DNA of 64,000 nt, from NCBI GenBank assembly GCA_905250025.1, contig CAJNOJ010000263.1, forward strand, positions 1 through 64,000, given 5' to 3'. Shown piece by piece: positions 22,391 to 55,570 of the stretch; the stretch's first letter is position 1; every line of letters starts with the position of its first letter. The translations under genes and the position numbers were made by a program. This DNA is from Adineta ricciae. Lineage: Eukaryota; Rotifera; Eurotatoria; Adinetida; Adinetidae. Under the pieces are notes generated by a model that had not been told where the DNA came from, searched no databases, and saw only the letters and a program-made list of their open reading frames with translations.

Positions 22391-22392
22391 TG

Positions 22393-23895: not shown

Positions 23896-25532
23896 ACGAA
23901 CGCAGTACTATTGATGAGGGAATATCATATTCACAAAAAGAAATGAAAAAAGGAATATTCACAAGTGCAGGAATTTACTGGATAATAGAAGAGATACATT
24001 AAGAAACAAACTAATCAACACATAGAACAGAACAAAAGAATGAAGGAGATTAAAAAAACCAGAGAACAAAGGAACAGTAGTTAGACGATAAAGAACATGT
24101 ATAAGGCTATGGTCAGGTACTCTCCTGATACCCTCTCTCATCATTTTCGGATTCTCACATGACTTCATCGAAGCTAGATCCAAGATTGTTCTCCAAAAGT
24201 TTTCGTGAATCTCGATCGGTTTCGGCGATCTTCTACGTATTGATACGGTATGATTCATCAAACAAGGTTTTTTCAGATATTTTTGGTTCAATTCGATAAA
24301 AACAAATTTATGCTTTTTCAAAAGCCTACGTTAGTTTTCTGGAGACACGTTCTCGGTGAAATCTCACTCCCACCCACCCGGACAGCGCATATATGGTTCG
24401 ATAGATCTTCTGATGCTCTATCAAATAAGATACTCCCTGAAGTCCAGAGATATCTAATTATGGAGGTTTTGAGTCTGGAATGCTAGGATGTTGAAACGAG
24501 TTTCCAGAGGCTCGCCATTGTAGGAAGAAGCCAAAATCTTTTCAAAAGTAGTGATTCTAATAGTTCTGGCGATGAAGAATTCAAATCTATCATCAGAATC
24601 TCTATAGCGCAAAGTAGTGCAAAACCATGTGTTTTACAAAGAACAACGTACTTAAAATGAAACGCTCTAGCGCGTACTTGGCATTTGGAGTACAGCTGTT
24701 CAACAAGACGTCCTGTAACTTTCGACCAAGAGCAAAAAAGTCCTAGAATTGATTATTACGCAAGCCCTGAAAGTTTCAAACGATTTGGCGAGAGTCGGCG
24801 TAAACGTGTCACGCATGTCATGGAATCACCCTGCTTTAAACCAATGGGTGTGTACTGAAATCAGTAAACTCCCTAAAAAGCACAGAAAATTCCTGAAGCA
24901 TAAAGAAATCATCTTATTCTATGAAGTTTAAATATTTAGAAAAATTCAGATCGATTAATAAGCGTCGATTGAGAATTCAAATATTACATTTGAAATACGT
25001 GCAAGATTTGAGTCGCCGGATTTCAACTACTTTCCACCGAACAGGAAAACATTGGATATGATCCGTATAATCGGTATTTCGTAAATAAATCACGGAAACG
25101 TCATGGGAGTCCGTTTTCCGAGTCCTTCTTCAGGAATTCACGGGAACTTTTACGGATTCAGTCGGTTATCGTCGTAGAGCTTTAACATCGGACCACATTC
25201 TACGTCACAATGCTCATACCTGAAATTCAATCTGTTCTTCTTTTCTGATTTGGATAGCGTACAAGAGAGTCTTTTGATATACGTAGATCACCTAACAGGT
25301 AACGGATGAGTGTGTCTAACAGCGAGAGTAACATATTGATTCCACACTCACACTCTCTAGTTAGAAGAAAAAGAGATACATGAGTCGACTCTAAGACACA
25401 GAAACTAGAAAAATTATAGAACACTTTCTATTGTCTTCTTTCAACAGATCCTGCGCTCATTTTTGTAAACTGTATTATGAAAAGTAATTAAAACACATGT
25501 GTTGCTCTTTCATACCATAGGACTGAAAGGAG
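23896..25532. other. Intergenic, probable transposon debris
   Basis: Short frames on both strands; 23959-24321 minus contains RRVPDHSLIHVLYRL and hydrophobic sequence but no recognisable domain. Position next to the RT remnant suggests mobile-element debris. No gene supported. Confidence 0.4.
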
Positions 25533-26102
25533 TTAACTTGTAAGTTTAAATATTCCAAAGGATGTCACATTGTCATACGTGTCCGACAAATTTTCGTGAT
25601 CCATCACCAGATCATATTTCTCACCAGCTTTCGGTGGGCAAAGGACGACGGAAGAAGAATCAAGTTTCCCTGCAACAAGCATTGGTGGGCCCAAACCACT
25701 GTTTTTTATAGATATTAGTTCAGCATTAGGATAGTTCAATTCAATATTATGTTTGCATTGCCCTAAAGCCGCTTCGTGTGAGACTACGTATTTAACATTC
25801 AGACCAGAAAGATCTGAATTTAGTTTAAACGCGGAATGTTTGATAGTTAATTCGACTCTTGAAACTTCTGTCAAATCTTTGTTGCCAATGGCGTTTTTAG
25901 TTTCTGTAACCTGTCCGATAATTGAGTTTGAAACTGCCATAATGCCAAGGTCAATTTCTTTACTGAGCAAATGGTTCACCACATTTTCAGAAGTGGTTAA
26001 CGGAACTAAAACATAGTTTTCTATTTTATTTGATTCGACGAATCTTTTGGCGGCAATATAATTGTTACTGTTTTCGACACCTTGATAGCCAATTTTAATC
26101 AT
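25533..26102 (-). CDS. Prephenate dehydratase-like protein, no ACT domain
   Basis: Intronless 189-residue protein from ATG 26102. It spans one PDT domain: N-terminal IKIGYQGVENSNNYIAA, the NS-x2-G-x-V-x-ET signature (VSNSIIGQVTETKNA), the H-x-AL-x-QC motif (VSHEAALGQC) and a C-terminal NVTSF in the place of the canonical TRF. The catalytic Thr is kept; Arg has become Ser. PDT converts prephenate to phenylpyruvate. Bacterial and plant enzymes normally carry an ACT regulatory domain of about 80 residues, absent here, so Phe feedback is not expected. It is the first of the five chorismate-related genes in this region. The substrate could instead be isoprephenate if the neighbouring fusion protein makes it. 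I am fairly sure of the fold, less sure of the reaction. Confidence 0.75.
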   Translation of the reverse strand: MIKIGYQGVENSNNYIAAKRFVESNKIENYVLVPLTTSENVVNHLLSKEIDLGIMAVSNSIIGQVTETKNAIGNKDLTEVSRVELTIKHSAFKLNSDLSGLNVKYVVSHEAALGQCKHNIELNYPNAELISIKNSGLGPPMLVAGKLDSSSVVLCPPKAGEKYDLVMDHENLSDTYDNVTSFGIFKLTS

Positions 26103-27004
26103 GTTGTTTTGGAATTATTTCTACAAATTAAAGATAATCTAAAAGAATAATATGTCTCGGTCGGAGTTTACTATCTAATTAGAGTAAAACCTCTTATAAC
26201 GGACACTTTTTTTTTAATTCATACGATATTTACTGGAAAGGAGTTCTTGTTACCGAATGTTGAGTTTTAGGTATGTCAAGGATGAAAAGGTAGGGAAAGA
26301 AAAAGAACAGTCAATAGCTTAGATACATAAAGCAAACTTTTGACGATGCGCCGACAATCCTTGACTCGGCACATGCCTGGTCTGGAACGGTTTGTTCGTA
26401 CAATATATATATAACAATCAGCCAAATTGGCGATCAACAATTGAGCTGCTTCCTTGAAAGTCGACCGTGGCTTATGTGGAATGGTTCATATGTAGACATC
26501 TAGAATAATAAAGATTTATAGCTGAATGAAGATGAATACAATGAGTGAATTATATAAATGTATTTTACAATTATTTTTTGTTTGTCGGAAGTACAGGTAT
26601 GATAGTAAGAATAATAATGTGCCGAAAAAAATTGAAGTAAAGATGAATTGATATACTGATTCAAAGTAGTTCCTAGTCGATTCCATTGATATTTGTTCAA
26701 TATCATACTGTGCGCTTTGATTCATATTCAACTAATGACTCTCAATGGTAGTTTCTTAAATCTTTCTTGAAATTGTTATTCCAGTGGAATGTCAAAAGTA
26801 TGGACATATGTACACAGATACAGAATATTTTTCACATATATTTTCTATAGTAATTAAGGAAACAAATATAGCTATTCTTCGACTATTCCATATCAGAATA
26901 TACCACTAGCGAGTCAATTTGAATAATTTCTGTGTAAAATGAGACTGTAAGGATGTTATTAGTAACAGCATACAAAATAAAAGTCCTTTTTCGAACGAAT
27001 GCAT
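26103..27004. other. Intergenic between prephenate dehydratase-like and chorismate synthase genes
   Basis: Upstream of the former and downstream of the latter, so it holds the promoter of 25533-26102. Only low-complexity frames; nothing else recognised. Confidence 0.45.
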
Positions 27005-29130
27005 TCATACACTAATATTATCAGTCTTTGCTTTTTGAAGAAGTATTTGGTCAGCTAAAACCAATGCTGTCATCCCTTCGACGATCGGAACTGCTCTTGG
27101 TACAACGCATGGATCGTGGCGTCCTTTTGCATTCAACAAGCATGGTTCACCATCAAACGTACAGGTCATTTGAGTTTTGCCAATGGTAGCTGGTGGCTTA
27201 AAAGCTACACGAAACAGAATTGGTTCACCATTACTAATGCCACCTTGTATACCGCCGCTATTATTCGTTTTCGTTGTCAATTTCGTATTACAAGATGATG
27301 CGTCATTTGTGAACATATCGTTATGTTGTGAGCCTCTCATCTTCGTTCCTTCGAATCCACTTCCAATTTCGAATCCTGAAACAAAGAATGCCATTTCACT
27401 CATTCTTTCTCAGGTTAAATTTGTAGTAACCACTTTTGCAAATTCCTGAGAATGCAACAAGAGAGGATCTGCCCGCTCATGAAAAAGCCCTATAGCACAT
27501 TTAAAAGGAGAGGAACGCTTAAAAACATGTATAAATCCAGTTCTAGTTAATAGTCAACTGTCATGGACAAAACAATGCTCGTTTTACTTGATATAAATAT
27601 CATATTTGGGAACGACCAAGAAAACAAGTAAATTTGCGTATGTTCCGAACTTTTCCGCAACCTGCTGTCTATGAAAATTCAATCTATGATTTTCTCACCT
27701 ATATGCGAACAGAAGACTTAAATCCAGATCACTATTTTATTGCCTTCTCACTTACACGGTAACTTCGAGTAGCGTTTTACAAACAGAAAACTTGGTTTTA
27801 ATAACAAAAATATGACACAAAAGCGATGTAGCTGTATTTAACTTAGGATAGAGTTTCAGAACTACCTCTTATATTAAATTATGATTAATACGTAAAAAGC
27901 CAAACTTCTAAATACTTTTTTATTCATTGAAGTTCGTCTTTCTGATATAATAAGACCTATTTGATTACAACACGTCGAATTGGTGCAAACGATGATACGC
28001 TAGTCTCGTAAACTTCATTATACGTACAGTTTTCCAACGGAGAGTTACTATTATAAAGGACGTGAGTCTCAGCATGAGCAAGATCAAACTTTATAGTAAT
28101 CGTGTTCGAATTCTCAGGATACGATCTTCTTTCGTACATATGTTCGGTCTTCTCTTCAGCTTGGTGCGATGGCAAGAAGCTTTTCCTGAACAGCTGCTGA
28201 AAAATGTATTTGTATGTAATCTCTCGTAAATGCTATTGCAATCTTCGACGATTTCATCTAGGCCCACCAATCAGAAGTCAGAATCGATTCCTCTAGAACT
28301 ACAGTCTTTGAGTGGAGTTACCTTTAGTGGCTGGTATCGAGAGCATAGCATGTGCCAACATAGCTTCTAACTTATCGAATACTGGCTCACCAATACCAGC
28401 AGGAATGTTTCGACAGATACACGTTATGATTCCACCAACTGAATCTTGATCATTCAACGCTGCTTCTACTTCGTGAATCATCAATTCAGCTGTTTTCTGA
28501 TCTGGACAGCGCACTAAACTTTGATCTATTTGTGTCCGTTTTAGTGCAGACTCTTTTAGTAGCGACTCAGTTTCTGGTGGTATTTGAATTCGCCCAATGC
28601 CACTTACATAAGCAATAATTTCTATCCCATAACACTCAGATAACCATTTTTCAGCGATAGCCCCAGCTGCAACCTACAACGATGAAATCGAAAAAATCGT
28701 GTACGCGGCGCATACTGTACTACGCGAAATTTACTCTTCCTATCGTTTCTCTTGCACTCGATCGTCCTCCACCGGACGCTGCCCGAATGCCATATTTCTT
28801 CTGATAAGTGTAATCGGCATGCGATGGACGTGGTATATCGAGCATAGAGACATAATCTTCTGGTTTACAGTCTCTATTCGGAACAAAGAGACAAATTGGT
28901 GTTCCCAGTGTTGTATTCGCTTCTGTACCAGATAATATTTGAACTAAATCTGCCTCGCCACGTAATGTCGTAAGTTTTGATTGTCCTGGTTTACGACGAT
29001 CTAATTGTGCTTGTATATCGCTTTCGTTTAACTTCATTCTCGGTGGAACACCTTGGACAATGCATCCAACGCCAGCACAGTGACTTTCACCAAATGTTGT
29101 CACTTGAAATATAGTACCGAATGTCGACAT
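27005..29130 (-). CDS. aroC: Chorismate synthase, three exons
   Basis: Catalyses 5-enolpyruvylshikimate-3-phosphate to chorismate, the seventh shikimate step, using reduced FMN. Exons 28735-29130, 28322-28673 and 27005-27375 join in frame to 372 residues, the normal family length. N-terminal [19 protein letters not shown] has the active-site His; [22 protein letters not shown] and the FMN-binding [15 protein letters not shown] are complete. That last motif runs across intron 1 into [10 protein letters not shown]. Exon 2 ends in SIPATKG, completed by [10 protein letters not shown] in exon 3, and the end carries [14 protein letters not shown]. The STFGT start and SHADYTY form resemble eukaryotic (fungal-type) enzymes. 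Intron 1 is 61 nt and intron 2 is 946 nt, both GT-AG. The protein appears fully functional. Intrinsic flavin reductase activity cannot be judged. Confidence 0.93.
27376..28321 (-). other. Large intron 2 of the chorismate synthase gene
   Basis: Phase-1 intron with donor GTAACT and acceptor TTTGTTTCAG; it splits the codon for Gly in ATKGFEIG. It is 946 nt, much longer than the 50-65 nt introns elsewhere. It holds a 72-codon frame on the same strand (27957-28175) without a recognisable domain. Confidence 0.85.
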
Positions 29131-30260
29131 ATTTGGCTCTCAACAAAATGATATTGCTGTTGATCGATGATAATTAGCAAGCAAACTCTATTAGCGATTC
29201 TTTCAATCTAGAATCAAAGCAAGTAGATGAACTTTTTCCACCCCGTTGATTCTGATAGATTATCTATTAAACGAAAGACTGCACCCTCTAAAGTTCCAAT
29301 AGTTATAATTCTTTTTAAAATATACAGTACCACTATTGAATTTTTTACATCGTGCTAAACCGGCTAAGGGTCGAGTGAATGTGTATCTGATGAATTTTAT
29401 ATCCTCGAATAATACAAAAAAGATAATCGCTGTATAACCGGTCTCCGTAAAAACTGCTCTTAGTTCTACAATATTAATCGATGCACAAAAAGTTACCTGT
29501 ATGTTATTATCTCTCAACGGTCTTACTTGAGGTACCAAACCAAATTGCATTTAGGGTAATGAGGAGATTAATATTCCATTGGTATAGTTACTTATCGATG
29601 AATCTTCTACTGCTACTATGGAGATATATATATATATACATCATTTTCCACCGAAAATTGAGTGAAGGTTCCGTGCATTCAGTTTAACATAGAAACTAGA
29701 TATAAGAACGGACACAATAGTGACTGGTACTGAAAAGAAAATGCAAGTAACTACTTTGCACCGACCATATGTACCTCCGTTGCCCTCACTTTTAGCGCGT
29801 GATTTGTGTCCTTTGATAAAAAATACACGTCTCACCTGTCCATTGCGCTCTTCGCTTTTGTAATAGGCCGATACAAGCGATATTCATCAGTAATGCATCA
29901 TCGGATGTACATCTTTTTTCTTTCGTTCTGCTCATTTTTCTCTCTGACGCTCTCGCTTCTATATTTGTTAGATTTCTTAGATTAATTGAAATTTGTATTG
30001 CTGGTTTTCATCCATGCACGACTTCTAACTAATTTTCTAAACATAATCGCGATATCAAGCAGGAATCCGCCGCTTTCTTTTCCATTTTCTTCGTACATTT
30101 TGCTCTTCATCGGTGGCTAATGCTCCTTCAAGAGATGAGTTCTCTTCGTCAGTGAAATGTTTTCACTTAGATTTTCTTCGTAAACCTAGATGTTCATTCG
30201 TTGTTAATGTTTCCCCAAAATCTGAATTTTCTTCAGCAGCAATCCAATCTTCGTCCGACA
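29131..30260. other. Intergenic upstream of chorismate synthase
   Basis: Should contain the chorismate synthase promoter. Contains a short (TA)n run near 29625. No gene recognised. Confidence 0.45.
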
Positions 30261-30720
30261 TAGCGGCGTAGCCACAGGTGGGCTGGGTGGGCTGAGCCCG
30301 CCCTAAAAATGTTTGAGCCCACCTAGAAACAATTTTTATGTTTTTAAGAAAACTTACCATAAGAGATAGGAAAAATGCTACATCATATTGTTTAAAAAAA
30401 GTAAAAGTTTTGAATGGAAATTCTTAATCGTTATCCATTGCTAGTTAGTCCAATTTCGTCAGTATGTGCTAATATGTGTCTTTCATAGTTCACTATATTC
30501 TTCAAGTTCTCTATGACATATTTTATTCCCTTTGTTGTTTCGCAACCTTTTTCACTCTTCCTATGTCCTTTTCTCGTATGTTCTCCATGCTCTCTTTCTG
30601 CATGATATCAGTTATCATATTCATCCACCATGGCTTTTTCGTATGACGCATCCACTAGATAGCGGCGTAGTCACAGGTGGGCTGAGCCCACCCTACCAAG
30701 AAACCCTGACTACGCCGCTA
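30261..30720. repeat. MITE-like element with TAGCGGCGTAG terminal inverted repeats
   Basis: The left end starts TAGCGGCGTAGCCACAGG and the right end closes with TGACTACGCCGCTA, its inverse. A second copy of the left end lies at 30660 (TAGCGGCGTAGTCACAGG), so the last 61 bp also form a minimal element with two inverted ends. No transposase is encoded. It lies between chorismate synthase and DAHP synthase. A non-autonomous DNA transposon, family not certain. Confidence 0.6.
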
Positions 30721-31219
30721 GTTCTTGCTGCAGCATTTTATTTCTTCTTTTATTATTTCTGATCACAAAGACAATTCGGAGGAATAACACTATCGCTATT
30801 CTTCAATGTAGAAGATCTGTCTTATACAATACAGAAAATAATCTTTATGCAGAACGGAAAAGAGTAGAGAACAAACAGTGACAGTACAAGGTAATATTCA
30901 TAATGCGAACATTAGTAACAAGATAACATTACGCAAGGATACTAACTCATAAGATACGACATCTAGATGGACGTGTCTGTTGGCATACAAGTGGCCTAAC
31001 ATCTTCAATGCTCTATCTCTGTTGATGGAACATTGGAAATTTCATTTATTCGTTGTCCAGAAAAAGAACTGCATTTTTCCTATGATTTTATTAGAGAGAA
31101 TTGATGATAAGATTGATTTACATGCATATTTTAACTTCAAAAAAAAGATCACGCCACATATTCTCAGTGGAGTGGAATAAGGAGTGATCTTTGAAAAAAA
31201 ATTGTCAGAGTTTATACGA

Positions 31220-32368
31220 TCATTGGTGATGGTTAACATTGGTGTTTGAAACGGATTCAGTACTAACAATCTTTGATTGATAGTTACGATGTCGACGATC
31301 AGCAACAGATTCTGCTAGTAATTGTAATTGCGCTGTGCTCACGTCCCAGCCTAAGCATGAGTCAGTTATCGATTGGCCGTATTTCAATAAATGTTTTTTC
31401 CCTTCGAGAAAGGTTTGACGTCCACAGACGAGATTCGATTCAATCATGACGCCCATAATTGATTGATCGCCGTTAGCTATTTGCTGGCAAATATCTTCGA
31501 TTACATGTTTTTGACGTTCGCCATCTTTCAAAGAGTTTCCATGGGAACAATCAATCATGATCTTACTCGTTACATTATTCGCTTTTAACCGTTTTTGAGT
31601 TTCCATGACGTGCTTCGATGAATAGTTAGGACCTGTCACACTGCCGCCTCGCAACACTACATGTACATCTTCGTTGCCCGATGTATAGCAGCTAACAATG
31701 TTGCCCCAATGATCGATTGACAACGAGGCATGGGCCATTCCACTCGTTACACATGCGTCTACCGCCGTTTGCACGCATCCGTTCGATCCATTCTTGAAAC
31801 CGATCGGTATATTTAAACCACTAACTAATTCCCGGTGTATTTGCGACTCGGTTGTGCGAGCACCGATTGCAGCCCAACTGACCAAGTCGGACACGTAGGG
31901 TACGATCATCGGTTGTAAAAATTCACAAGCACAAGGCAGATGGAAACTGTTAATCGTGAGTAATAATTGTCGAGACAGTTGCAAGCCGTCACTGATGTTG
32001 CTCGTGCCGTCTAAATGAGGATCGTATACGAGGCCTTTCCAACCGACTGTGGTACGTGGTTTTTCAAAATAGACTCGCATTACAATTAATAATGTTGACA
32101 CGTGTTTTTTAGCAACAATGCTCAATTTTTTTGCATACTCAATCGCTTCGGTGATATTATGTATTGAGCAAGGACCAATCACCACCAATAAGCGATCATC
32201 CTTGCCATGAATAATGTCTGATATTTCTCGACGCGTTTTAGAAATAAACCGTTCTATGTCATGTGGACATGGGTGTTTGGCGATCATGGCACCTGGATTG
32301 GTCAATATTTGTGAATGTACTACTCCTTTAAAATGAGTTTGTTCTGAATCATCGACGGTGTTAGTCAT
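31220..32368 (-). CDS. aroG: Class I DAHP synthase (AroG/ARO3/ARO4 type)
   Basis: Condenses PEP with erythrose 4-phosphate, the first committed step of the shikimate pathway. Intronless, 382 residues from ATG 32368, slightly longer than the usual 350-370 through a C-terminal tail rich in Ser, Asn and His. Signature segments are complete: VIGPCSIHN with the metal-binding Cys, MRVYFEKPRTTVGWKGL, DPHLDGTSNI, IGARTTESQIHRELVSGL, GFKNGSNG, VLRGGSVTGPNY, IDCSHGNS with the metal-binding His, and GVMIESNL. The GARTTESQ and KNGxxG motifs mark the AroG-type class Ia enzymes, which are Phe-, Tyr- or Trp-sensitive in bacteria and yeast. Which amino acid regulates this one cannot be read directly. Lies in the same direction as chorismate synthase, about 2 kb upstream of it. 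Confidence 0.93.
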   Translation of the reverse strand: MTNTVDDSEQTHFKGVVHSQILTNPGAMIAKHPCPHDIERFISKTRREISDIIHGKDDRLLVVIGPCSIHNITEAIEYAKKLSIVAKKHVSTLLIVMRVYFEKPRTTVGWKGLVYDPHLDGTSNISDGLQLSRQLLLTINSFHLPCACEFLQPMIVPYVSDLVSWAAIGARTTESQIHRELVSGLNIPIGFKNGSNGCVQTAVDACVTSGMAHASLSIDHWGNIVSCYTSGNEDVHVVLRGGSVTGPNYSSKHVMETQKRLKANNVTSKIMIDCSHGNSLKDGERQKHVIEDICQQIANGDQSIMGVMIESNLVCGRQTFLEGKKHLLKYGQSITDSCLGWDVSTAQLQLLAESVADRRHRNYQSKIVSTESVSNTNVNHHQ

Positions 32369-33960
32369 ATGTGACAGTTTTGTAATGGGTTAAATTTAGT
32401 AATCAATTTTTTATCTACAAGAGATCTACACTATTACAGAGGTGCTGAAGTTTATTGCAATGTGTTTTCAAAGAAGCATAATTATTTTTTTCTCACTTGC
32501 GCATGCATATGGTTCGCACCTAATGTGCTCAGTTGGTTTAAATTATAGAGACTCTTTGCCTGCTTTAGTTTTTGATTGATTCTCAGCCAATACGAGCGAA
32601 TAAGATATACGAATTGGGATAGAAAACGCGAGACAATGAACAGGTAGATCGACCCACTCTCAATTTCCTGACAGTAGTACATACATATATGGACACAGAT
32701 AGTTAATTTCTAATTCTTCTCAGTTTCACTAGCTCCATAGATCTGTATTCTGGCAAGAAGTTTGTTTAAAAATCCGAGAACCCGTAAAGAGTCTTATTCG
32801 AAAGAGCAAATAACACTACTACAGAAAACCGTTCGTGAACTAACTAGAAAAAGTAAATGCAAATCAGGCTTCCACATCGCTTCTAAAGCAATTCAAAATA
32901 CGCTATTTTACGTACTTAGTAGCTCGGAACTCCTTGACTAAAATGAGATAAAACGTAGCATGTAGCTCAGAACAGAACTTCATCGAATCCTTATTACGAA
33001 AGTTTGCTGTACAGTTAATTCTATATATCGCGCTAAAAGCATTACAGAAGCCTGAAATAAATTATTATTATTATCAGTGTTTTATGTAATATTTGTCCGT
33101 GGGGAATTTTCGTCAGGAGATTGGTTACAGTGATTCGATCAATACATTTACTTACTACAGTACACTCCTACTCTATTCTGGTACATAGATACAATATACT
33201 TGCGTACGTTCGAACTCGGTTAATTTGCATTTAAAGACTGGCACTAAGTACGCGTGTATTCAAGTTTTACTTGCGTACCGTATTAGGGAAAAAATTAATG
33301 TGTTGCTTTGATTAATGTTTCCTATAGCCATATCTTCTAGTTTCGTTGTTTAGTGACAGCTATAGAAAGAAAGAAAAAAAAAGGAAAAGTAGCTACAACG
33401 GAGTCGTATTTACACATAAATTGATATTATCCAATATACGTAATTTATGTTTTGTGTGAAAGATAATGCAAAAGGGACGCCCAAGGGAAGATTAAAAACC
33501 CAGCAAATCTTTCACACCTACATTAACACATTCAGCACGATGTGTTATCTAAAGTCTCGTTTTTGTTTCAATTACTTATTGCATAACGTGATGTTTCTCA
33601 GTGAAACAGTCAAGACAACAAAACTTGTTGCAATCAGAACAAAAGGTTGATATTTTCTTTGCTCTTGAATTACTTGCTTCTTTTGATTGTTCCTGTCTGT
33701 TTTTTACATAGCAGCCAGCACAGCGCCTTCGATTATCGCGGGTAGATCTTTCTCATTCCTCAAGCATGTGATTAGCAAGTTTACATTTCATCTGACCTGT
33801 GGATTATTGTCTCAGGCCAGGTTTCAGATTTTCGAATGGCATACCAACTAGTAAAGATACCACAAGGCTTCCACGAAACTTCAGACTGGTCACATCTCTT
33901 GCGGTATAGTTTTCTTTGCGTATCAAATATCAGTTCACATACCACTTTTCGATCATGAGT
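32369..33960. other. Intergenic upstream of DAHP synthase
   Basis: No recognisable gene; frames are below 70 codons. It contains an ATT-repeat tract near 33061. The promoter of DAHP synthase is expected near 32370-32500. Confidence 0.45.
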
Positions 33961-33997
33961 TGCCTAATTCGACTCAAATTATAAGTCGAATTAGGCA
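33961..33997. other. Perfect 14-bp inverted repeat (hairpin)
   Basis: TGCCTAATTCGACT, a 9-nt AT-rich loop, then its exact complement AGTCGAATTAGGCA. It lies in non-coding DNA between DAHP synthase and the lyase/isochorismate synthase fusion. It could be a foldback remnant, a cruciform-forming site or part of an RNA. No function can be assigned. Confidence 0.75.
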
Positions 33998-36324
33998 GCT
34001 ACTTTTTTCATCGGAACTTCCCGATTCAAGGCCCATTTTTATCAAGATCATCGTCTGAAGAGCTCACTTCGCTAAGTGAACTACCAATTTATTTTGTCTC
34101 TGTTTCTTCAGACGATATGTGAATTATTTTCAACTCTCAGTTGCTTTTGTATATAAAAATACAGGAAGACAAGAACAATGAATAAAAAAAACTGCGCATT
34201 CCGTTTTCTTGTCGCGCACGTACCGTCTATATAATGTAAAAGAATGAAAAAGAGACGTCCGAAATTTTTCATTCAGTTGCGAAAAATACTTCCTTAAGTG
34301 ATGATACAAAAAATGGAACGATGAATATTAATGTAGAAGACGTCGAAAGCCTCATTAAATACATTTATTAGAAGTTAACTATCTAGGAAAATGAATTTCC
34401 CCAGAAATTTAAAAAAAAAGAATCATGTTGAATGTGTTAATCAATAACACAACTGCTAGAATTATTTTTCATATTTCATGCTAGTTTAAAAAGATTATGA
34501 TTCGCGAACAAGCATTCTTCAAAATAATTTGTCATTATACACTCGTACTAAGTACAAATGTACTCAGGTATATTGTATTTACGTACCACTATTTTACTGT
34601 TGAAGCTATACTGTGTAATATAGATTCCAAGTAAAACGTGCGAAAAAGACTTTGTATTTTATACAAACTGTACTAATATCTCTCTCTTTTAGACAATGCA
34701 GTAGATAATCTGAGTTTTCTTCGCAGGCACTGCTCACGACCCAAGTCTCAGTTGCTTCGACTGAGCAGAATATTAGTAACTCAAATACCAAAGCCCTAGT
34801 TTGCGTGATTCAATTTAGTTAAGAAAATGGTAGACGCGGCTAACTTCTAAGTGCTCCTCACTCCGTACTACATACCCAGCAAAAATGTGATCGAAAAGTG
34901 AAGTTGTCTTTCTACCAGTAAACGAAATTTATGTTTTTTCAAGGATTTGAATGTACAGTGGTAGAAACTGAGCGAACGAAGCATCAAAGTACAACATATC
35001 ATGCGTTGAATGCACAGTGTACACCCAGCTGTGTGCGTGATAGCGAAAGAAATAGATGTACCAATGCGCATGCACAAAAAGTGTGTATTCGAGGACGCAT
35101 TGTATAAGTGAGGAGGATCGAACAAACGTTTGTGAGTATCTATGCACCTTTACTCAGTGATGAGTATAATGAACATCATATTCAACCACATGAGACTCTT
35201 CGATCACGTCATCTGACGATCAGTTGTAGAGAAAGAAGAGTATTAAAAAGTCGAGTATGGCGAACATTGTGTCAAATGAACGTAAGACACTAACAATCTC
35301 TATTTAGAGCTATCCCGGAATATTGCATGTAAGAGACAATTGCTTAGCGAAAAACGTTTATCTCCGTCAGCGGTTTCGATTTGGTTCAAAATTTCGCGAC
35401 ACTTAAAACTAACTGAGATAGAAAATCCCTATAAGTTTCAGCTCAAATTGACTCACTATTCCTGACAAATCGACATCGTCCTGAAAGACAGTCTGTTCAT
35501 TTCTCTATTTCTTTCAATACGGTCCAGCATAGTAGAACTCGACTTTTTTAGAAAACCTAAACGTTAAAGCCGCTTTTCTTTTGATCATAAATACTTTCTG
35601 GTATATCTATCCAATCAATTTCGAAATGAAAGGACTTGGACGTGTAAGACCTCAAATCGGCCCGTTTGTATTTTTCGCACCAAATCCTATCGAACTTTTA
35701 TATCAATGGAAAGAGAAAGTTCAGACGCTATGAACAAGATCATTGATTTGCAGCCATCAATTGAATAATTGATCTTTAAATAGTGAGCTTGATTCTATAA
35801 AAAAAAAGTATAAAACAATAGAAGTTAAATTATGATTTTAGTAGTTCTTGAATAGGGCTGTCAAATGGGCACGGGCAGCATTTCGAGTATTTCGGCTTTT
35901 AAATTAAAATATTCGTTGAAAGATAAGATTAGATAAAACATACAACAGATATGATGGTGGTATACCAGTGTATTGGATTTCTGCCTCCTTAAATCGAATA
36001 ATCAATCGATGGTACACATATAGAATTGACGGCCTATTCAAAAGCTACCAAGTTCATAATTCATGACTAAAAAATCAATGATTCTGTTTATAGCGTCTCA
36101 TCTTCAAAACTCGATCGAACCCCGATGAGTTTGGTACCAGAATGTTCGTCTGAAATTGCTCTTTCCGTTGATATAAAGTTCGATAGAGTATCGTGCGAAA
36201 AATACGAACGGGCCGATTTAGGGTCTTATACGCGCCCGTCCTTTTTCTGCCGATCAAATCAATTTGTCGTTGATAGTATACTGTTCTTCACAATTATAAA
36301 GTGTTGCATACATTTAAGATTACT
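33998..36324. other. Intergenic upstream of the lyase/isochorismate synthase gene
   Basis: Frames are short and featureless on both strands. The 5' UTR of the downstream gene may begin in an upstream exon, because TTCTTCACAATTATAAAG before 36301 resembles an acceptor, but I cannot prove it. Confidence 0.4.
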
Positions 36325-38271: not shown

Positions 38272-41200
38272 ATCAAAAGAGAAATTCAGCCCATTACAGC
38301 GAACGATAAAAGGACATTTAGATCGACGTCGCAAGTATTCATATATCAACGCTCAATTCAACAAAAACGTCTTTCGCGAAACGAGCAGAAATGACTATAG
38401 TTTTGTTGTGATATTCAGTTTACATTAAAGAAAAATAATAGTTTTGAAACTGACAAGTGACACTTCGTTTGGAGTATATATACCTGTGCCAAGATATCTT
38501 CCATAGAGTGTCAAATGACTGTGGACCAGATCTAATAAGAGCAGCGCGCCTTTTCCCAATATAGATGGAGAACATGACTACTATGCATCAAAGGATAGAG
38601 ATTATGTACATTTCAAGATCACGAGTTGTTTCCTAAGGTTCTGATTGTTTGGGTCAGTCTCCGACTGCATCAGATGAGCTGATACAAGTATTTATTTCAT
38701 ATTTTTATATGACTTGATATAAGTATTATCACTGTTTCATTACTTACAATGTTCTAGTAAATTCATTTGAAGTCGAATGAATATAACAGTAGTATGTAAA
38801 ATATGTACTACAAAAGAGTTTATATTCAAAGTTCTCAAAAATATCATCGACCTAACATCTACGTTTAAACAAATACCAAGAATTGTTATTCATCGAGTAG
38901 ATGGAAAAACTAATCGTCAGATATATCTGTCGATAGCTCAAAGAATCCATTCAGTAAAAACAAGTACTTTTCATAAAATTACTAATTCAGTGAACATGTG
39001 AATAGAGATCCATGGTGTATTAAATAATTATCTATCAACCGATTTATTTCTATTATATGCCATCTGCTCTTTCTCATTGATGAGAATAATTAAAAATAGA
39101 AACTTACACTTTATAACTTGTTATATAAGTTTACCATTTTGAACAAATTCTCGCGACATATCTTGATGAAAAATACGCTTTCGCTCTTCTATTACTGTGG
39201 GTAGATACAAGCAAGTCAATGAAGGATATAGCTGACTTTATGTACAACTTAAAGAAAGCTAATCAGCATTTATCTGAACGGTAAGACACTCGAAACTAAT
39301 ATATTAAGTATGAAATCTAAAGGTAAAGATAATCTTTGTGATTTTTAACTCAACGACAATTAGCGACCGTTCATGTCTATAAAAATCAGTAAAAGTTGAT
39401 TCCAAGTATAGTTGTCGAATGAGATTTTCCAGAAAAATACAATCGTTTTATCTGCAGAATTCTATCGAAACCGACTCAGGCGTCAGCGGAGCCAGTCACC
39501 AGAATGATCGACCTGGTAATCAACGACACCAATTTTGGACAAAAAAAGGCATGTGATTATTCAGAAAATCTCCGGTTGATGTTGCTACATTTACACTATG
39601 TGTATCGGAAATCATGATGCAGAAGTTCAATGCTCACATTTGATATTTTGCTGGATAATCATGCAGGTAGAAAAGGCATGAGGCGATCAAAACTTGCTTA
39701 GATAAATTGTGTTAAAATAAATACATAGATATAGACTACGGGTGGCATTTTTCATTTATTTTACCAGCACCTGACAAATGCTATTGCTGACTTATAAGGA
39801 TCGCAAATCTACTTAGTTCGTAGTTACGTAGCTTACATAAAGTAAATGTGCTACCCCTACTGCAAAACATATGTCTCCAGTGGTCTACTCAAGTATTAAA
39901 CAATTAGCGTCTATGACTGCTTCGCTATACAAGCGTTTTCTGCAGAAACATAGGCGGCGGAGCCATCAGGTCTGGGTAGGTTCAAATTAGGATACATTAA
40001 AGGCTTGGATAGGCTCGACTGCACGGGAAAATCAAGATCATCAGCTAACTTGCAGTTCAAAATATTTTATTTGAGGAAAATCTCTCCAAGATTTTCTCCA
40101 CTTTCGAAGGATATTTCTTCTAAATTCCTTTCCTTTCAACTTGCAAGAAAGATTCTTTTTTCTCTCCTTTGTTTTACGAATTTTTAAAAGTATCTCCCAT
40201 TTAAAAATATTTCATTATTTTTCGCTAGTATCTGAAAAAGGTTCTCGAAGATTTTAAAAAAAAATTTGAATTCGTATGATAGTTAAGAAATCTAAATAAA
40301 ATTCTAACCTCTCTCACTCCCATCAAAGGATAGGTTTGTCTATTTTTTTTTGAAAACTTTTCACGAGCTCTAGAGCTGCTAGTTTGAAGTACGAAATGGA
40401 AGGATTAGTTAGTTGCTGTTGACAACGTAGCTGTTATTAGGAGCGAAAAAACGTCGATAACTATTCTTACCATTAGCAAAAACAGAAACTCTACCGAATG
40501 GCTTTCAGAAGTCACTATTGACATTAACTAGACAGAAATAAACGCGAGGATGTCTATAGTCATTTGGTAGAAATCAATGTTATTTTTTACGTGAAAATCA
40601 AATTAAAAGCGGCAACTTATCTGCACTTTTCATCAACATAGAACAATTGAGAGTAATGTAGACCTAACTTTTATTGTTTCTGGATATTTCTCCGATTTTC
40701 TAAACTACTCTTCCCTTGTAAGATAGATTTGCTGATCAATGCACTTGTATACTATATATGAATGTATTGGACAGAGTATTAAAAAGTACAATGGGCTTAG
40801 TCATATTCTTATGCGCTTTGATCCTTTCGAATGTTTTACAATGGGAGCTGTGTTTTTTTTCTGAATATTTTCGATTGAGTTAAATGAACTAAGCCATATA
40901 AAAGGGATAGTTTCGAAAAGAAAAAATGAACAGAACGAAAAAAAGTCCTATAGAAAGAAGAAAGTGTATGCATCCGATCACGCATTGATGATAAAGATCG
41001 CTTGTACTATCACATCGCACAAACAAACAGAACGAGCGATATAATCGACAGGTGAGTTGTGTATCGAAGGATACAAGTCATGCGCTGATAGTGAGGATAA
41101 AATACGTACAGATGGTCGGTACAAAGTGGCGATAGCTACTTCCATTTCGTTGCAGCGCAAATCACTATCGATCGATTACCGGATGAACATGATGCATACA

Positions 41201-41535
41201 TCACAGAGGTTGGATACTTTTTTACTTAGAAATTTCAAGTACATAGTACATTTATTTGTACTTGCAAGGCGTAATTAAGTATCGATACCTAGGTACAATT
41301 TACCTGAGTATAATTGTTAGTCGAATATGATTGCTCAATAGTGGTCTTACTGTGTCTAAACATTGTTAAAACCACCGAGCACGGATACACTATTTTTCAG
41401 ATCTCTAATCCTCGTAACATCTAGAACAAAGTGAAGAGATTGCTTTTGATCTGTCAGACAAATTGTTTTCGTTTCTTTTAGATTGTCGAGTACCACTAGA
41501 TTTATACGTACTGTCACATTACATTACAATCTATT
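38272..41535. other. Intergenic upstream of AROM
   Basis: 3.3 kb of AT-rich sequence with no gene I can support. Segments near 39470-39540 and 39950-40000 (AGGCGGCGGAGCC) resemble transposon ends. A 74-codon frame at 38777-39001 has no domain. The AROM promoter is expected close to 41500. Confidence 0.45.
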
Positions 41536-44500
41536 ATGAATAACCAACATTCGAGCGATATACTATCAATAGATACATACAATATTCGTATTGGATATGG
41601 TTTCCTTCATGAGCTATCAGACTACGTTATTACTTTGTCACCAGTTCATGAGAAATATGTGTTGATTACCGATGAAAATTTATTCAGAGTTTATGGAAAT
41701 ACGATCGTCAACAGTTTTAAAAAGAATGCTATCGAACTACTCTGCTATGCTGTATCACCAGGTGAATGTAGCAAAAGTCGCGAGGAAAAGTCAAATATTG
41801 AGGATTTCATGCTTGCCAATAAGTGTCATATAGATACTATAATAGTAGCATTTGGAGGTGGTGTTGTAGGTGATTTAGCTGGATTTATTGCTTCAACATA
41901 TATGCGAGGTATCGATTATATCCAGATTCCCACAAGCTTTTTATCGATGATTGATAGCAGTATTGGTGCCAAAACGAGCATTAACGTAGGCAAATATGGA
42001 AAGAACCTGTTAGGATCATTTTACCGCCCGAAAGCTGTTTTAATTGATACTCAACTATTAGAAACATTGTCAGCGAGAGATTTATGCAATGGAATGGCTG
42101 AAGCAATCAAGATTGCGTTGATTATCGACAAGCATTTGTTCACATTTATTGAAGCGAATATCAATCAAATTCTTGAAAAAAATACAGAGATTATGAAGAA
42201 ACTTATTTATGAGTGCATAAAACTGAAGGCAAACATTGTTATTCAAGATGAAAAAGAAACGTCCGGATTACGTTCAATTTTAAATTTTGGACACAGCATT
42301 GGACATGGCATTGAAATATTATCTAATGGGAAGTTATTACATGGTGAATGCGTATCGATTGGTATGTTATTAGAGGCAGAATTATCTAGAGATAAAGGCT
42401 TTTTGATCAATTCAAATGCTGTAATAAGTCGTTTAAACAATATTTTGAAATCTTTCCGTTTACCAACAACAGTACCGTCTCATATGTCTTTTGAAGACAT
42501 AATTGAAAAAATGTCAGTTGATAAGAAAAATCGTAACGGTAAGAAACAGCTTGTTATACTGACAAATATTGGCTCAGTTAGAGCTTCACCACGCTATACA
42601 ACAGCCATTGACGATCAAGATCTCATTAATCTATTAGATACAAACGTGGCCTTAGTTGCAGACGCCATGAATATGAATGGAGCAACAGTAAATGTACCAG
42701 GCAGTAAAAGTATATCAAACCGAGTACTTCCACTATGTGCATTAGGTGCTGGTGAATGTCGAGTACATGGTCTACTTTATTCAGTTGATACTCAGACAAT
42801 GTTGATCTGTTTACGACAATTAGGTATACACTATCACTGGGATGACAATGAGGTCGTCGTTATACATGGAGTAAGCGGCAAACTAAATCCCGCGGATACA
42901 TTGACGCTATATTTAAACAATTCGGGCACATGTAGTCGATTTTTAACAACTTTATGCACTATTTTACCAGCTAAAACTGAAATAATTCTTACTGGAGACG
43001 ACCGTTTAAAAGAGCGCCCAATTAAAGATCTGGTTGATGCACTAGTGCAAAATGAAAACAGCATTGACTACTTGAATGAGCATGGATGTTTACCGATAAA
43101 AATCACAAGCAATGGTGGAATTAAAGGTGGAGAGATAAGAATGAATGGGGATGTATCATCACAATACATAACGAGTCTTTTGTTAATATCACCATTTGCT
43201 TTAACGCCTATGGTCTTAAAACTTAATCAAGCTAAACAAATTGTTAGTAAACCATACATCGACATGACAATTAACCTCATGAAAACTCAGTTCGGTATTC
43301 CTATTGATGACAGTGAAATGTTCTCATACACTATACCCAACTCGGGCCCATATAAAAACCCACCAAAAATACAAATCGAAGGTGATGCCTCGTCAGCAAG
43401 CTATTTTCTAGGAATAGCTGCTGTCCATCCCGGTCTAACAGTAACCGTCGCTAATATTGGTTCTAATAGTTTGCAGGGAGACAGCCGCTTTTGCAGAATA
43501 TTGGAGATGATGGGATGTCATGTTACGCAAACGGAAACAACGACAACACTAACAGGTCCAAAACAGTTGCAAGCCATTACTGAAGAGATTGATATGAATA
43601 CGATGACAGACACATTCATGACATTAGCGTGTGTTGCCGTATTTGCTCGTGGTTTAACTCAAATAAGAAATATATCAAATCAACGTCTGAAAGAATGTAA
43701 TAGAATCGAGGCTATTGTAGCCGAATTGCGAAAGTGTGGTATTAAAGCTTCAGAAACAGATACTGGCTTGGATATAGAAGGCAATAACAACGAAGATATA
43801 GAAAAATCCGCTTTAATCCACTCTTATGATGACCATCGCATTGCTATGTCATTTTCTATAGTGGCTAGTCGTGGTCGAAGACTTCGTATTAATGACAAAC
43901 GTTGTGTCGATAAAACATATCCGGAATTTTGGTTACATCTGAATAAGGTATTTGGTCTCAAAGTTATATCACCATCATTAATCTTTTATGAAACTGTAGA
44001 AAATATCAAAAGTAAGTAATATATAACGCTATTGATGTGCATATTGAGTGTGTGATAATTTCTGACACAACAGATGAGACATAATAAGTGTATGTTTTTA
44101 TCTGATTCAAAGAAATCGTACTTATACCGTATTTCCCTCGTCCTTTTATAGTTCTCGGAAAATACAGAATTACATTACAGAAAAACTTCAAGCTCTATTA
44201 TTAATATCTAAGATATAGTTCGATGTCACACCAGAGGTAGGATAAATGCAGGAAGAAAATGAGACAAACGGAGGAGGAGAAAGAAAGAAAAGAAGACAAA
44301 AGCGTACAATCATAGGCTGTCACAGTGTGTTGTTCAAAAATTCCGTTGACAAACACGAACAGTAGACTACCTCAAATACGTACATAAATAATGAGACGAA
44401 CAGATAGTCATGAAAGTTTATTCAAAAAGCGCTTGTTCCAAGTCCGAAACAGATACTTCTGAATCAAAGGAGAAACGGCATATGTAGTACTGTTCATATA

Positions 44501-46989
44501 ATTAAAAAGTACGCTTTCCATTTTCTCGTATTTCGAACCCATGCTGCTACTGGAAAAAGTTCTCAGAAAATTATGTAATTAAACGGAGAACACATATGCA
44601 GTATGGAGTCGAAAAGAAATAATACCTGACGCGTAATTCTATCGAAGCTATGTGTGAAACTAGCGTTACGGTGTCCCAAAAGGAAATATACACGGATATT
44701 ATCCATTGTGTTTTAACACATTTTGAGTACTGCATGATGCTTCACTACCCCTTCCTCCACTCAATTCTGGTGAGTGTTGAGGTGTTGTGGTTGCCTGTTG
44801 CGGTATGGTACACAAGTTCATGTTCTTTTGCTCAATAGGCATAAACTAACACTCTTACTTCTTTAGAATGCTCATCTATCAGAATATTTTTAATTGGCAT
44901 GCCATGTTCAGGCAAATCAACGATGGCTCGATTTATTGCCAACAAATTAAAATATTTGCTCATTGACATGGATGACGAAATAATTAAGGAGATCCATGAA
45001 AGTTCTATCAAAGAATATATTGCTCAAAATGGATGGCAAATGTTTCGTTCGTTAGAATTAAGAGTATTTAATCGGGTTGTAGAAATGGCATCATTGTCTA
45101 CTCAGCATGTTCTAATTTCATGTGGTGGCGGTTGTATCGAAACACCGGAAATTCGTCATAAATTATGTCAAGAATCATATGTTATCTATGTCAATCGTCA
45201 CTTAGACGACATAAAAGAAGACTATTCAAAATGTAAGATAGGTGATCGACCCTATCTAGATTTAGATAAAAAATTTCAATTGCGTAAAGTGCATTATCGT
45301 GAATGTTCAAATTACGAATTTTGTCTGTTAGTAAACGACCGTGATTGGCAAACAAATGAAGTCAATCTTCTAGAGTTTATCAAAAGAATAATCGATAAAA
45401 AGCCACAATTGCCCGTGGCTGATGATAGTTTCTTCGTATGCTCCACATACAAGAATCTATTCAATGCTACCAAAGATGAATTTCAAGCTGTAATTCGTGG
45501 ATGTGATGCAATCGAATTACGCATTGATCTCTTGGAATATCATGACGCTGATTTTATTGGTCAACAAATCGCGTATATACGAAAATACACGTCCTTACCT
45601 ATCATCTATACAGTACGAAGTCAGATAAACTACGGCACATTCCCCAACGATCAAGCGACAATTTTTGAACTCTTAAATTACGGTACCAGATTCGGATGTG
45701 AATTCATTGATATGGAAGCAAACTGGAGCGACAAAACTAAAAGACATTGGTTGAATACGATTAAGAACAAGCATCCGTATATTATCGCTAGTTTACATCT
45801 ACAATTGTCTGTATTCGATCTGAATCGAGTTATCCACCAGTGCATTAGCAGTGGTCAAGTTGACGTAGTTAAAATCGCTATAGATATCGACTATAATACG
45901 TGGCTAATCGAAGATATTCTGAATATTTTTACTCAAGCGAAAAAACTATTGAAACAATTTGGTCACCAAAAATTTATTCTAATCGCAATGGGTAATCGAG
46001 GGAAGTTGACTCGGGTACTGAATACATTTATGACACCTGTGACTCATGAGCTGTTGCCTCATTCAGCTGCCACAGGACAATTAACAGTAAAACAAATTCA
46101 AGAGGCTCGATGTACATTCGGCTTAATTGAATCGAAAAAGTTCTATCTGTTCGGATGTCCTATTCAACGCTCATTATCTCCATGTATTCATCAGACTGGT
46201 TTTGATTACTATCATTTACCCTATAAATACGAATTGTGCGAAACAAACGACTTCTCACTCGTTCAAAAGATCATGAAACAGGTGGATTTTGGTGGCGGCA
46301 GTGTATCTATTCCATTGAAACAAGATATCTATGAGTTATTGGTATCAGACACAAACAACGGAGTGAGTAACTCAGCACAAAAAATCGGTGCAGTAAATAC
46401 TGTTCGTAAACTTGAAAATGGAACGTTCTATGGTGATAATACGGATTGGATAGCTATTCATAAGCTGCTCAGTGAAAAAATATTCAATAAAGGTTCAGCA
46501 CTTATCGTTGGTGCTGGTGGGACCGCACGTGCGGCGTTGTATGCGCTGAGCCAAATTGAATACGTTCAGTGTATCTATGTGTACAATCCTCGCACTCCTG
46601 AGAAAGCAATTCATCTGACTGGTACATACAGCAATCCAAATATTTTACCTGTAACAAATGATGACGTTAATAAGTTGAAAAATATTTGCGCAGTAATTAA
46701 TACGTTACCATCATCAGTCAACTTCACATTGGGTAGGTCATTTTTCGAGAATATCTCTGCATCAAACAATTTTCCAACACTACTGGACGTGAACTATATA
46801 CCGTATCAAACAGAACTGATAAAACAAGCCCAACAATACAACTGGAGTGTTATTCATGGTATTGATATGTTAATCGAGCAAGGTTTACAACAATTTCAAA
46901 TTTGGACAGGAAAAGCGGTTGCAGTCGCTCCACTGATAACAGAAACCGTACGCCAAACCTATCATAAAACTTTCGATAAGAATGAATAA
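41536..46989 (+). CDS. ARO1: Pentafunctional AROM protein, two exons
   Basis: Carries shikimate steps 2-6 in one 1532-residue chain, near the 1550-1590 of fungal AROM proteins and in the same domain order. Exons 41536-44011 and 44867-46989 join in frame (ATC AAA A/AA TGC). Domains: 3-dehydroquinate synthase (1 to about 365; GGGVVGDLAGF, IPTSFLSMIDSSIGAKT, GHSIGHGIE, LLHGEC); EPSP synthase (about 371-820; PGSKSISNR with Lys391, NNSGTCSRFLTTL, RLKERPI); shikimate kinase (about 828-1005; P-loop GMPCSGKST at 836-844, CGGGC, GDRPYL); type I 3-dehydroquinate dehydratase (about 1011-1245; His1136 in IASLHL, Schiff-base Lys1161 in VVKIAI); shikimate dehydrogenase (about 1250-1532; SLSPCIHQTGF, SIPLK with Lys1310, GDNTDW with Asp1352, VGAGGTARA). 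All key residues are present. Together with DAHP and chorismate synthases it completes the route to chorismate. Origin probably by transfer from a eukaryotic microbe. Confidence 0.93.
44012..44866 (+). other. Intron of the AROM gene, at the EPSP synthase/shikimate kinase boundary
   Basis: Phase-1 intron of 855 nt with consensus donor GTAAGT and acceptor TTACTTCTTTAG. Exon 2 opens with codons for CSSIRIFLIGMPCSGKS, which supplies the first beta strand of the kinase missing from a start at ATG 44899. This shows that the two large frames are one gene. The intron itself holds no recognisable gene. Confidence 0.88.

Positions 46990-53611: not shown

Positions 53612-55570
<1,959 letters not shown>

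What the first reader, a model, noticed from the sequence alone, without database searches (positions are those of the whole stretch)
25533..46989. Complete shikimate pathway plus chorismate-consuming enzymes clustered in an animal genome
Seen: DAHP synthase, a five-domain AROM and chorismate synthase, i.e. all seven steps to chorismate, within 21.5 kb, together with a lyase/isochorismate synthase fusion and a prephenate-dehydratase-like gene. No other type of gene lies between them. Known: animals lack the shikimate pathway. Inference: a horizontally acquired biosynthetic cluster that could supply salicylate or aryl pyruvates, for defence, chemical signalling or iron handling, or make the animal less dependent on dietary aromatics. 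I know of no described animal cluster of this kind.
Basis: partly seen in the sequence, partly recalled or inferred. Interest (0 to 1): 0.96.

Follow-up and report, generated by a model that had tools for sequence, protein, structure and literature searches.

The report
Animal gene cluster for making phenylalanine
A tiny animal's genome carries, in one 25-kilobase block, intact-looking genes for the whole microbial route to chorismate plus enzymes that probably turn it into phenylalanine, an amino acid that animals are thought to need from food.

Summary
Five genes in 25,533-46,989 encode type I DAHP synthase, a pentafunctional AROM (1,532 aa over one GT-AG intron), chorismate synthase (three exons), a chorismate-mutase/isochorismate-synthase fusion and a short prephenate-dehydratase homologue. 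They lie on a 141-kb contig with GPCR, retinol-receptor and ankyrin genes in a 130-Mb genome: host DNA, acquired horizontally. A diverged (93-94% identical) copy of both flanks on the same contig lacks the block, so the cluster is a discrete 25.3-kb cassette with sharp edges.

The salicylate reading is not supported. The fusion descends from bacterial isochorismate lyase plus synthase genes, but its synthase half has lost catalytic or substrate residues here (Glu to Ser, Arg to Glu, a 16-residue gap) and in 12 of 13 relatives, while the lyase/mutase half stays better conserved. Of the chorismate- or prephenate-using families searched, the genome holds only these two genes. The best-supported output is chorismate to prephenate to phenylpyruvate to phenylalanine, then tyrosine by the animal's own hydroxylase. 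Weak steps: the dehydratase has TxF in place of TRF, and the mutase domain resembles a lyase most. Expression and chemistry are untested; the species (bdelloid rotifer) is inferred.

The parts
22822..48077 (.). 25,256-bp cassette holding the whole cluster, absent from the diverged second copy of its flanks (there 2,355 bp with GH3 beta-glucosidase fragments at contig 75,972-78,326)
   Evidence: Self-comparison of contig C263: 9,856-22,821 matches 62,728-75,971, and 48,078-62,726 matches 78,327-92,677, each in several pieces; global identities 94.3% and 92.8%
25533..26102 (-). Prephenate dehydratase homologue, 189 aa, no ACT domain found
   Evidence: PF00800 E 2.5e-26; 18 relatives 60-89% identical; model pLDDT 87.9 whose best PDB fold matches are prephenate dehydratases; T278, N160, S208 equivalents kept, R279 and E159 not
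27005..29130 (-). Chorismate synthase, 372 aa, three exons (28,735-29,130; 28,322-28,673; 27,005-27,375)
   Evidence: TIGR00033 458.8 bits; GT-AG introns; best PDB matches 1r52 and 7rca, 485 and 462 bits, the next 318 (1r52 as the yeast enzyme is recalled)
31220..32368 (-). Type I DAHP synthase, 382 aa, one exon
   Evidence: TIGR00034 435.7 bits; catalytic motifs present; best PDB match Phe-regulated enzyme 1gg1, 360 bits, against 317 for the tyrosine-inhibited 1og0 (organisms E. coli and yeast recalled); 46% identical to E. coli AroF; bacterial relatives up to 52%
36325..38271 (+). Fusion of a PchB-like chorismate mutase/isochorismate lyase domain and an isochorismate-synthase domain that has lost catalytic residues, 648 aa
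   Evidence: PF01817 and PF00425; best PDB matches DhbC for the whole and PchB for the N-terminal part; residue mapping
41536..46989 (+). AROM: DHQ synthase, EPSP synthase, shikimate kinase, type I DHQ dehydratase, shikimate dehydrogenase; exons 41,536-44,011 and 44,867-46,989
   Evidence: Pfam/NCBIfam; splice in frame, 1,532 aa without stop; five close full-length relatives of exon 1 at 73-94%
23364..23907 (-). Degraded reverse-transcriptase pieces near the left edge of the cassette
   Evidence: Two neighbouring ORFs match PF00078 below its cut-off, E 0.0056 and 0.0012, at profile 167-205 and 119-163

Best explanation
The block is a horizontally acquired, host-integrated pathway that makes phenylpyruvate and hence phenylalanine (and tyrosine through the animal's own phenylalanine hydroxylase) from central metabolites. 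DAHP synthase, AROM and chorismate synthase carry out seven steps to chorismate. The N-terminal domain of the fusion, descended from a bacterial isochorismate lyase of the PchB kind (which from recall also has weak mutase activity), now serves as chorismate mutase; its isochorismate-synthase half is a non-catalytic remnant. The short dehydratase homologue turns prephenate into phenylpyruvate, and an ordinary animal aminotransferase finishes phenylalanine. Shown: genes, intact frames, introns, catalytic motifs of the seven shikimate steps, loss of synthase residues, conservation in relatives, absence of the other chorismate and prephenate families searched. Inferred: that the mutase domain uses chorismate, that the altered dehydratase is a dehydratase, that an aminotransferase is at hand (not searched), that the genes are expressed together, and the physiological purpose.
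For: Complete gene set with open frames. CS, DAHPS, PDT, CM_2 and Chorismate_bind families hit only this cluster, so no separate TrpE or PabB was found; PDH_N and IGPD gave no match; Biopterin_H gave 33 matches on five contigs. Synthase half: EntC E197 equivalent kept in 3 of 14 fusion-family proteins, R347 in 2 of 14, both only in P0008. P0008 is sister to the other 13 (100/98); E197 is missing both in the window and in a separate clade of 10, while P0002 and P0003, which group with the window, keep it, so it was lost at least twice unless regained. Mutase half: mean pairwise identity 75.7% against 56.2% (middle) and 53.5% (synthase part) in 11 of 14 proteins (P0005, P0008, P0013 left out); equivalents of PchB R14, R31, K42, Q90 kept. 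An Asp at the E. coli mutase D48 position is in 12 of the 13 proteins with this domain, Ala in P0008 as in PchB. PDT is well conserved in 18 relatives; Thr of the TRF motif, whose change to Ala abolished a fungal enzyme (PMC11980547, passage), is in 19 of 19. Fusion relative P0012 and AROM relative P0039 come from contigs of the same length, 18,031 bp, in the same source, which suggests linkage in another species.
Against: The PDT homologue lacks Arg of TRF (0 of 19) and the E159 equivalent (0 of 19), no ACT domain was found, and NCBIfam dehydratase models match below cut-off; a soybean paper calls the TRF triad critical (PMC10845154, passage); its relation to prephenate decarboxylases could not be tested. 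The mutase domain is closer to isochorismate lyase (PchB, E 1.9e-17) than to chorismate mutases (0.0019 and 0.0065) in PDB, and E52 of E. coli mutase is absent in all 13. The identity contrast between the halves has no outside control. K147 (13 of 14) and E241 (11 of 14) of the synthase are mostly kept. Three of five AROM domains score below NCBIfam cut-offs. The EPSP-synthase family search of the genome did not complete. No expression data. The second flank copy lacks the block, so it may be dispensable.
Confidence: 0.5

Rival explanations
1. The pathway feeds a specialised (defensive) metabolite: prephenate is taken by the PDT homologue acting as a non-aromatising decarboxylase or another prephenate-using enzyme, or phenylpyruvate goes to secondary products, rather than to nutritional Phe.
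For: PDT homologue lacks R of TRF and E159 in 19 of 19, and no Phe-sensing ACT domain was found. Bdelloids are reported to induce foreign biosynthetic genes under fungal attack, and some induced genes match shikimate or phenylpropanoid pathway components (PMC11258130, passages and section 13). A paper notes prephenate decarboxylases in bacilysin, salinosporamide and aeruginoside pathways (PMC10157211, passage). PDB fold matches also include GqqA, an acylase, at rank 7.
Against: T278, N160, S208, F280 equivalents kept in 19 of 19; NCBIfam, plasmid and best PDB fold matches are dehydratases; no other ORF over 126 aa outside the gene spans of the cassette.
Confidence: 0.22
2. A decaying relic of an older acquisition with no present pathway function.
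For: Synthase half eroded; the second flank copy lacks the block.
Against: Other domains open after long divergence: AROM exon 1 relatives 73-94%, PDT 60-89%, mutase domain 65-93% in the relatives that have the Asp; GT-AG introns that join in frame.
Confidence: 0.12
3. The cluster supplies salicylate: the fusion makes isochorismate from chorismate and splits it to salicylate.
For: The fusion resembles adjacent bacterial isochorismate lyase and synthase genes (annotated so in Azospirillum lipoferum; two neighbouring tblastn pieces in Burkholderia). One relative, P0008, keeps E197, R347 and the other synthase residues mapped.
Against: In the window the EntC E197 equivalent is Ser, R347 is Glu, and 16 residues that hold the AGS/AGT motif are missing; 13 of 14 family proteins lack E197 or R347; of those 13, the 12 that have the N-terminal domain carry Asp where the lyases have Ala; PDT would have no role.
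Confidence: 0.06
4. Assembly artefact or microbial contamination.
Against: Metazoan genes on both sides of the block on one contig, GT-AG introns, GC 36.3% against 37.2% and 30.9% in the flanks; protein P0001 is listed on 2 contigs; relatives with the same fusion and AROM.
Confidence: 0.03

Closest known systems
AROM pentafunctional protein of fungi, oomycetes and other microbial eukaryotes
   Same: Five domains in the same order in one reading frame; catalytic motifs kept
   Different: In an animal; forms a clade with five unnamed relatives (99 SH-aLRT, one long-branch row inside), outside fungi and oomycetes (59 rows); split by an 855-bp intron
PchB/PchA salicylate genes (isochorismate lyase + synthase)
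   Same: Same two domains in the same order; the best plasmid-borne matches are such neighbouring genes
   Different: Fused in one protein; synthase residues lost; Ala to Asp in the lyase active-site region
Prephenate dehydratase (PheA dehydratase domain)
   Same: Fold, N160, S208, T278, F280 equivalents
   Different: 189 aa, no ACT found, TxF in place of TRF, mostly Ser in place of E159
Shikimate-pathway genes reported in Nematostella vectensis (Starcevic 2008, seen only as described in PMC3018139 and PMC4237138, passages)
   Same: Claim of foreign shikimate genes in an animal
   Different: As described there, transfers from bacteria and a dinoflagellate and a suspected symbiont sharing the pathway; here all seven steps plus a Phe branch sit in one host cassette
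Shikimate-pathway transcripts in the nematode Heterorhabditis indica (PMC9612587, passages)
   Same: DAHP synthase, chorismate synthase and anthranilate/tryptophan synthase transcripts reported in an animal, with HGT suggested
   Different: Transcripts only; the authors say that the presence of the genes needs revalidation and that the animal has a bacterial symbiont; no genomic cluster
Foreign biosynthetic clusters of bdelloid rotifers (NRPS/PKS; PMC11258130)
   Same: Horizontally acquired biosynthetic genes in what is probably the same kind of animal
   Different: Primary aromatic pathway, not NRPS/PKS; the main text mentions shikimate once, without a cluster

Membership tests
AROM | Five domains in the order DHQS-EPSPS-SK-DHQD-SDH in one polypeptide | tested here: met
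   TIGR01809 (AROM-type SDH) 186.6 bits, just under its cut-off of 196
AROM | Catalytic residues of each domain | tested here: met
   EPSPS 20 of 20; DHQD His and Lys, SDH K65/D102, DHQS Glu/His ligands, SK Walker A by alignment. DHQD E86 position is Asn here; nine AROM relatives have Gln there and QGG where the window has NYG. Residue lists recalled
Chorismate synthase | Passes curated equivalog cut-off; His/Arg motifs | tested here: met
   458.8 bits against 212.2; motifs
Type I DAHP synthase (AroFGH) | Passes curated equivalog cut-off; metal and substrate motifs | tested here: met
   435.7 bits against 173.2
Isochorismate synthase | Catalytic Glu (EntC E197) and substrate Arg (R347), roles recalled | tested here: not met
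   Ser and Glu in the window; TIGR00543 174 bits, below its cut-off of 224.75
Isochorismate lyase / chorismate mutase (AroQ fold, PchB-like) | R14, R31, K42, Q90 of PchB (recalled) | tested here: met
   but NF005475 96 bits against 126 and TIGR01803 50.2 against 73.35, both below cut-off
Chorismate mutase activity | Conversion of chorismate to prephenate | not testable with these tools
   D48-like Asp present, E52 absent
Prephenate dehydratase | TRF motif | tested here: not met
   T and F kept, R replaced in 19 of 19
Prephenate dehydratase | PDT fold and family profile | tested here: met
   PF00800 93 bits against 25.2; fold. NCBIfam equivalogs matched below cut-off, best 70 against 219
Prephenate decarboxylase (BacA/AerD/SalX) | Sequence grouping with BacA | not tested
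   No reference sequence was obtained

The most novel reading that the evidence does not exclude
An animal lineage has become able to make phenylalanine and tyrosine from sugar-derived precursors, with the whole nine-activity route assembled from eukaryotic and bacterial sources in one 25-kb cassette, and with a bacterial salicylate enzyme turned into its chorismate mutase while its synthase half decays.
Probability: 0.45. Interest if true: 0.95.

Novelty: new variant of a known kind. Interest (0 to 1): 0.87.

Why it matters
Loss of the shikimate pathway is treated as a fixed trait of animals; it is why phenylalanine is essential in the diet and why the pathway is a herbicide and drug target. 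An animal that regained it would show that a lost essential-amino-acid pathway can be re-acquired as one block, would make an animal a possible direct target of EPSP-synthase inhibitors, and gives a concrete feeding test. The conversion of a salicylate fusion to a mutase would be a traceable case of enzyme repurposing.

Tried and rejected
Salicylate synthesis was taken first and dropped after residue mapping. Scans of viral contigs for the fusion and AROM exon 1 found no relative. The first genome-contig scan with DAHP synthase found none; the allowed second scan with a two-sequence alignment gave 80 loci, kept from at least 592 matches, used only for identity. A telomere-repeat search found TGTGGG arrays (12 forward, 26 reverse; control 14 and 30), but the backward control is the same repeat, so it says nothing; the fetched contig has one two-unit TGTGGG stretch at 139,468 and no telomere array. 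No reference for prephenate decarboxylase BacA was found. The fusion model was poor (pLDDT 57.1) and was not used. Numbering for aroK, aroC and aroF did not fit the literature numbers, so those enzymes were judged by printed motifs. In one search the E. coli Q88 column was one off from PchB Q90 and P0008 was cut short, so Q90 was read.
Full report
Place and host. The window is bases 1-64,000 of contig C263 (141,497 bp) of a 130-Mb assembly in 1,033 contigs. On the same contig lie genes for a rhodopsin-type GPCR, an ankyrin protein, a retinol-binding-protein receptor, an ADP-ribosyltransferase-like and an NHL-repeat protein. The genome has Biopterin_H (aromatic amino acid hydroxylase family) matches on five contigs (33 matches, a lower bound) and none for IGPD of histidine synthesis or prephenate dehydrogenase. 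So this is an animal genome, not a microbial contig.

The genes. Pfam, NCBIfam and hand splicing give five genes. AROM is one gene: exon 1 ends in AAA|GTAAGT, exon 2 follows ...CTTCTTTAG, and the join is in phase, giving 1,532 codons without a stop. Chorismate synthase has introns of 61 and 946 bp. DAHP synthase, the fusion and the PDT homologue are single exons. GC of the block is 36.3% against 37.2% (left flank) and 30.9% (right flank). Family searches of the whole genome hit only this cluster for chorismate synthase, Chorismate_bind, PDT, CM_2 and DAHP synthase, and a DNA search with AROM exon 1 returned only itself. The EPSP-synthase family search did not complete. Other chorismate-using families (AroH-type mutase, chorismate lyase) and aminotransferases were not searched.

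The cassette. Self-comparison of C263 shows that both flanks exist twice on the contig, in the same order: 9,856-22,821 with 62,728-75,971 (94.3% over 12,835 aligned bases) and 48,078-62,726 with 78,327-92,677 (92.8% over 13,972). Between the first pair lie 25,256 bp with the whole cluster; between the second pair 2,355 bp with fragments of a GH3 beta-glucosidase. The match stops abruptly at both edges. The cluster therefore behaves as one block that was gained by one copy or lost from the other. The left end carries degraded reverse-transcriptase pieces (both under the Pfam cut-off), a possible hint of how it moved. The two copies may be a tandem duplication or two haplotypes joined by the assembler; I cannot tell.

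Are the enzymes intact? Against E. coli, 20 of 20 EPSP-synthase active-site residues that I recall are the same; dehydroquinase His and Lys, shikimate dehydrogenase Lys and Asp, DHQ synthase metal ligands, shikimate kinase motifs, chorismate synthase and DAHP synthase motifs are present. Points against: shikimate dehydrogenase, dehydroquinase and shikimate kinase score below their NCBIfam cut-offs, and the QGG motif of nine AROM relatives reads NYG here in dehydroquinase.

The fusion. The N-terminal domain matches PchB best, the C-terminal domain isochorismate synthases. In the plasmid collection the best matches are neighbouring lyase and synthase genes: annotated as such in Azospirillum lipoferum, two tblastn pieces in Burkholderia records without annotation there. 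So the source was probably a salicylate gene pair. Fourteen family proteins (window included; 16 hits less P0015 and P0016, which group with bacterial enzymes) were aligned with EntC. E197 is kept in 3 of 14, R347 in 2 of 14, both only in P0008. The window has Ser and Glu there and lacks 16 residues around the AGS/AGT motif. K147 is kept in 13 of 14, E241 in 11 of 14 and E376 in 11 of 14, so erosion is uneven. P0008 branches first (the other 13 form a clade at 100/98); P0002 and P0003, next to the window, still have E197, so this residue was lost at least twice unless regained. In the N-terminal domain PchB's R14, R31, K42 and Q90 equivalents are kept, and the position of E. coli mutase D48 is Asp in 12 of 13 and Ala in P0008, as in PchB and the Azospirillum lyase. 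Mean pairwise identity over 11 of the 14 proteins (P0005 and P0013 lack all or part of the N-terminal domain, and P0008 was also left out) is 75.7% for this domain, 56.2% for the middle, 53.5% for the synthase part; I have no outside control for how far these would differ in an active fusion. I read this as release of the synthase half and retention of the mutase half. Only one intact-looking family member exists, so the link between the Asp change and synthase loss rests on one branch.

The dehydratase. Eighteen relatives, 60-89% identical. E. coli PheA N160, S208, T278 and F280 equivalents are in 19 of 19, Q215 in 18; E159 and R279 in none. Mutating Thr of TRF to Ala abolished a fungal enzyme (PMC11980547, passage); a soybean paper calls the TRF triad critical (PMC10845154, passage), which speaks against an ordinary dehydratase. 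The model (pLDDT 87.9) matches prephenate dehydratases best in PDB, with a putative chorismate mutase (rank 5) and the acylase GqqA (rank 7) among the next. Whether this is a dehydratase, a decarboxylase or something else is the main open question.

Origins. AROM groups with five unnamed relatives, apart from fungi (100) and oomycetes (100), in a quick tree of 59 rows chosen from the 120 listed of 567 hits plus the window (56 inner branches, 16 open; SH-aLRT only; midpoint root). It is not fungal in this tree, and its donor is unknown. Chorismate synthase is nearer to 1r52 (yeast, recalled) than to the enzymes below the top two in PDB; DAHP synthase is nearer to 1gg1 (E. coli, recalled) than to 1og0 (yeast, recalled), with bacterial relatives up to 52% (80 of at least 592 matches kept). 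With the bacterial-type fusion, this points to a cluster assembled from more than one source; only AROM exon 1 and the synthase domain were put on trees.

Conservation. Relatives of AROM exon 1 (P0036-P0040, 73-94%; P0041 partial) have lengths of 827-867 aa, as if they ended at the same intron, and P0039 shares its contig length of 18,031 bp and its source with fusion relative P0012, which suggests, but does not prove, linkage elsewhere. These proteins carry no organism names.

Literature. Listings (titles and abstract starts) for bdelloid with shikimate (4 papers), bdelloid with chorismate (10), rotifer with shikimate (28, 20 listed), four terms on metazoan shikimate transfer (4), a wider query (14, 12 listed), Adineta with AROM (1) and Nematostella with the pathway (36, 8 listed) show no report of such a cluster. 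The nearest are one sentence in PMC11258130 (passages and section 13), nematode transcripts that their authors want revalidated (PMC9612587, passages) and the Nematostella claim as told in PMC3018139 and PMC4237138 (passages). In PMC6005172 the word shikimate is only in the reference list. Supplementary data of PMC11258130, where these genes may be listed, could not be read, so part of this may be in print there.

Verdict. A real, host-encoded, complete set of genes to chorismate with a probable Phe branch in an animal; salicylate unlikely; phenylalanine or phenylpyruvate most likely; chemistry and expression untested.

Noticed in passing
window 9,856-22,821 and 48,078-62,726 with C263 62,728-75,971 and 78,327-92,677: A 13-kb and a 15-kb segment are each present twice in the same order on one contig at 93-94% identity; tandem duplication or two haplotypes joined.
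   Followed up: partly
C263 75,972-78,326 (L009/L010): At the site without the block lie fragments that match GH3 beta-glucosidase domains in separate frames, perhaps a broken foreign gene.
   Followed up: partly
window about 30,270-30,330 and 30,655-30,720: Two similar short stretches (with GGTGGGCTGAGCCC) between chorismate synthase and DAHP synthase look like a small repeated element (seen by eye).
   Followed up: no
window 58,001-62,000: AT-rich stretch (GC 25%) with a pentapeptide-repeat ORF of 489 aa at 59,486-60,952.
   Followed up: no
P0095: A protein filed under the locust Schistocerca gregaria is an AROM; it is a long branch in the tree and may come from a parasite in the sample.
   Followed up: no
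C263 108,570-133,598: Further repeated segments (84-97% identical) on the right half of the contig.
   Followed up: no
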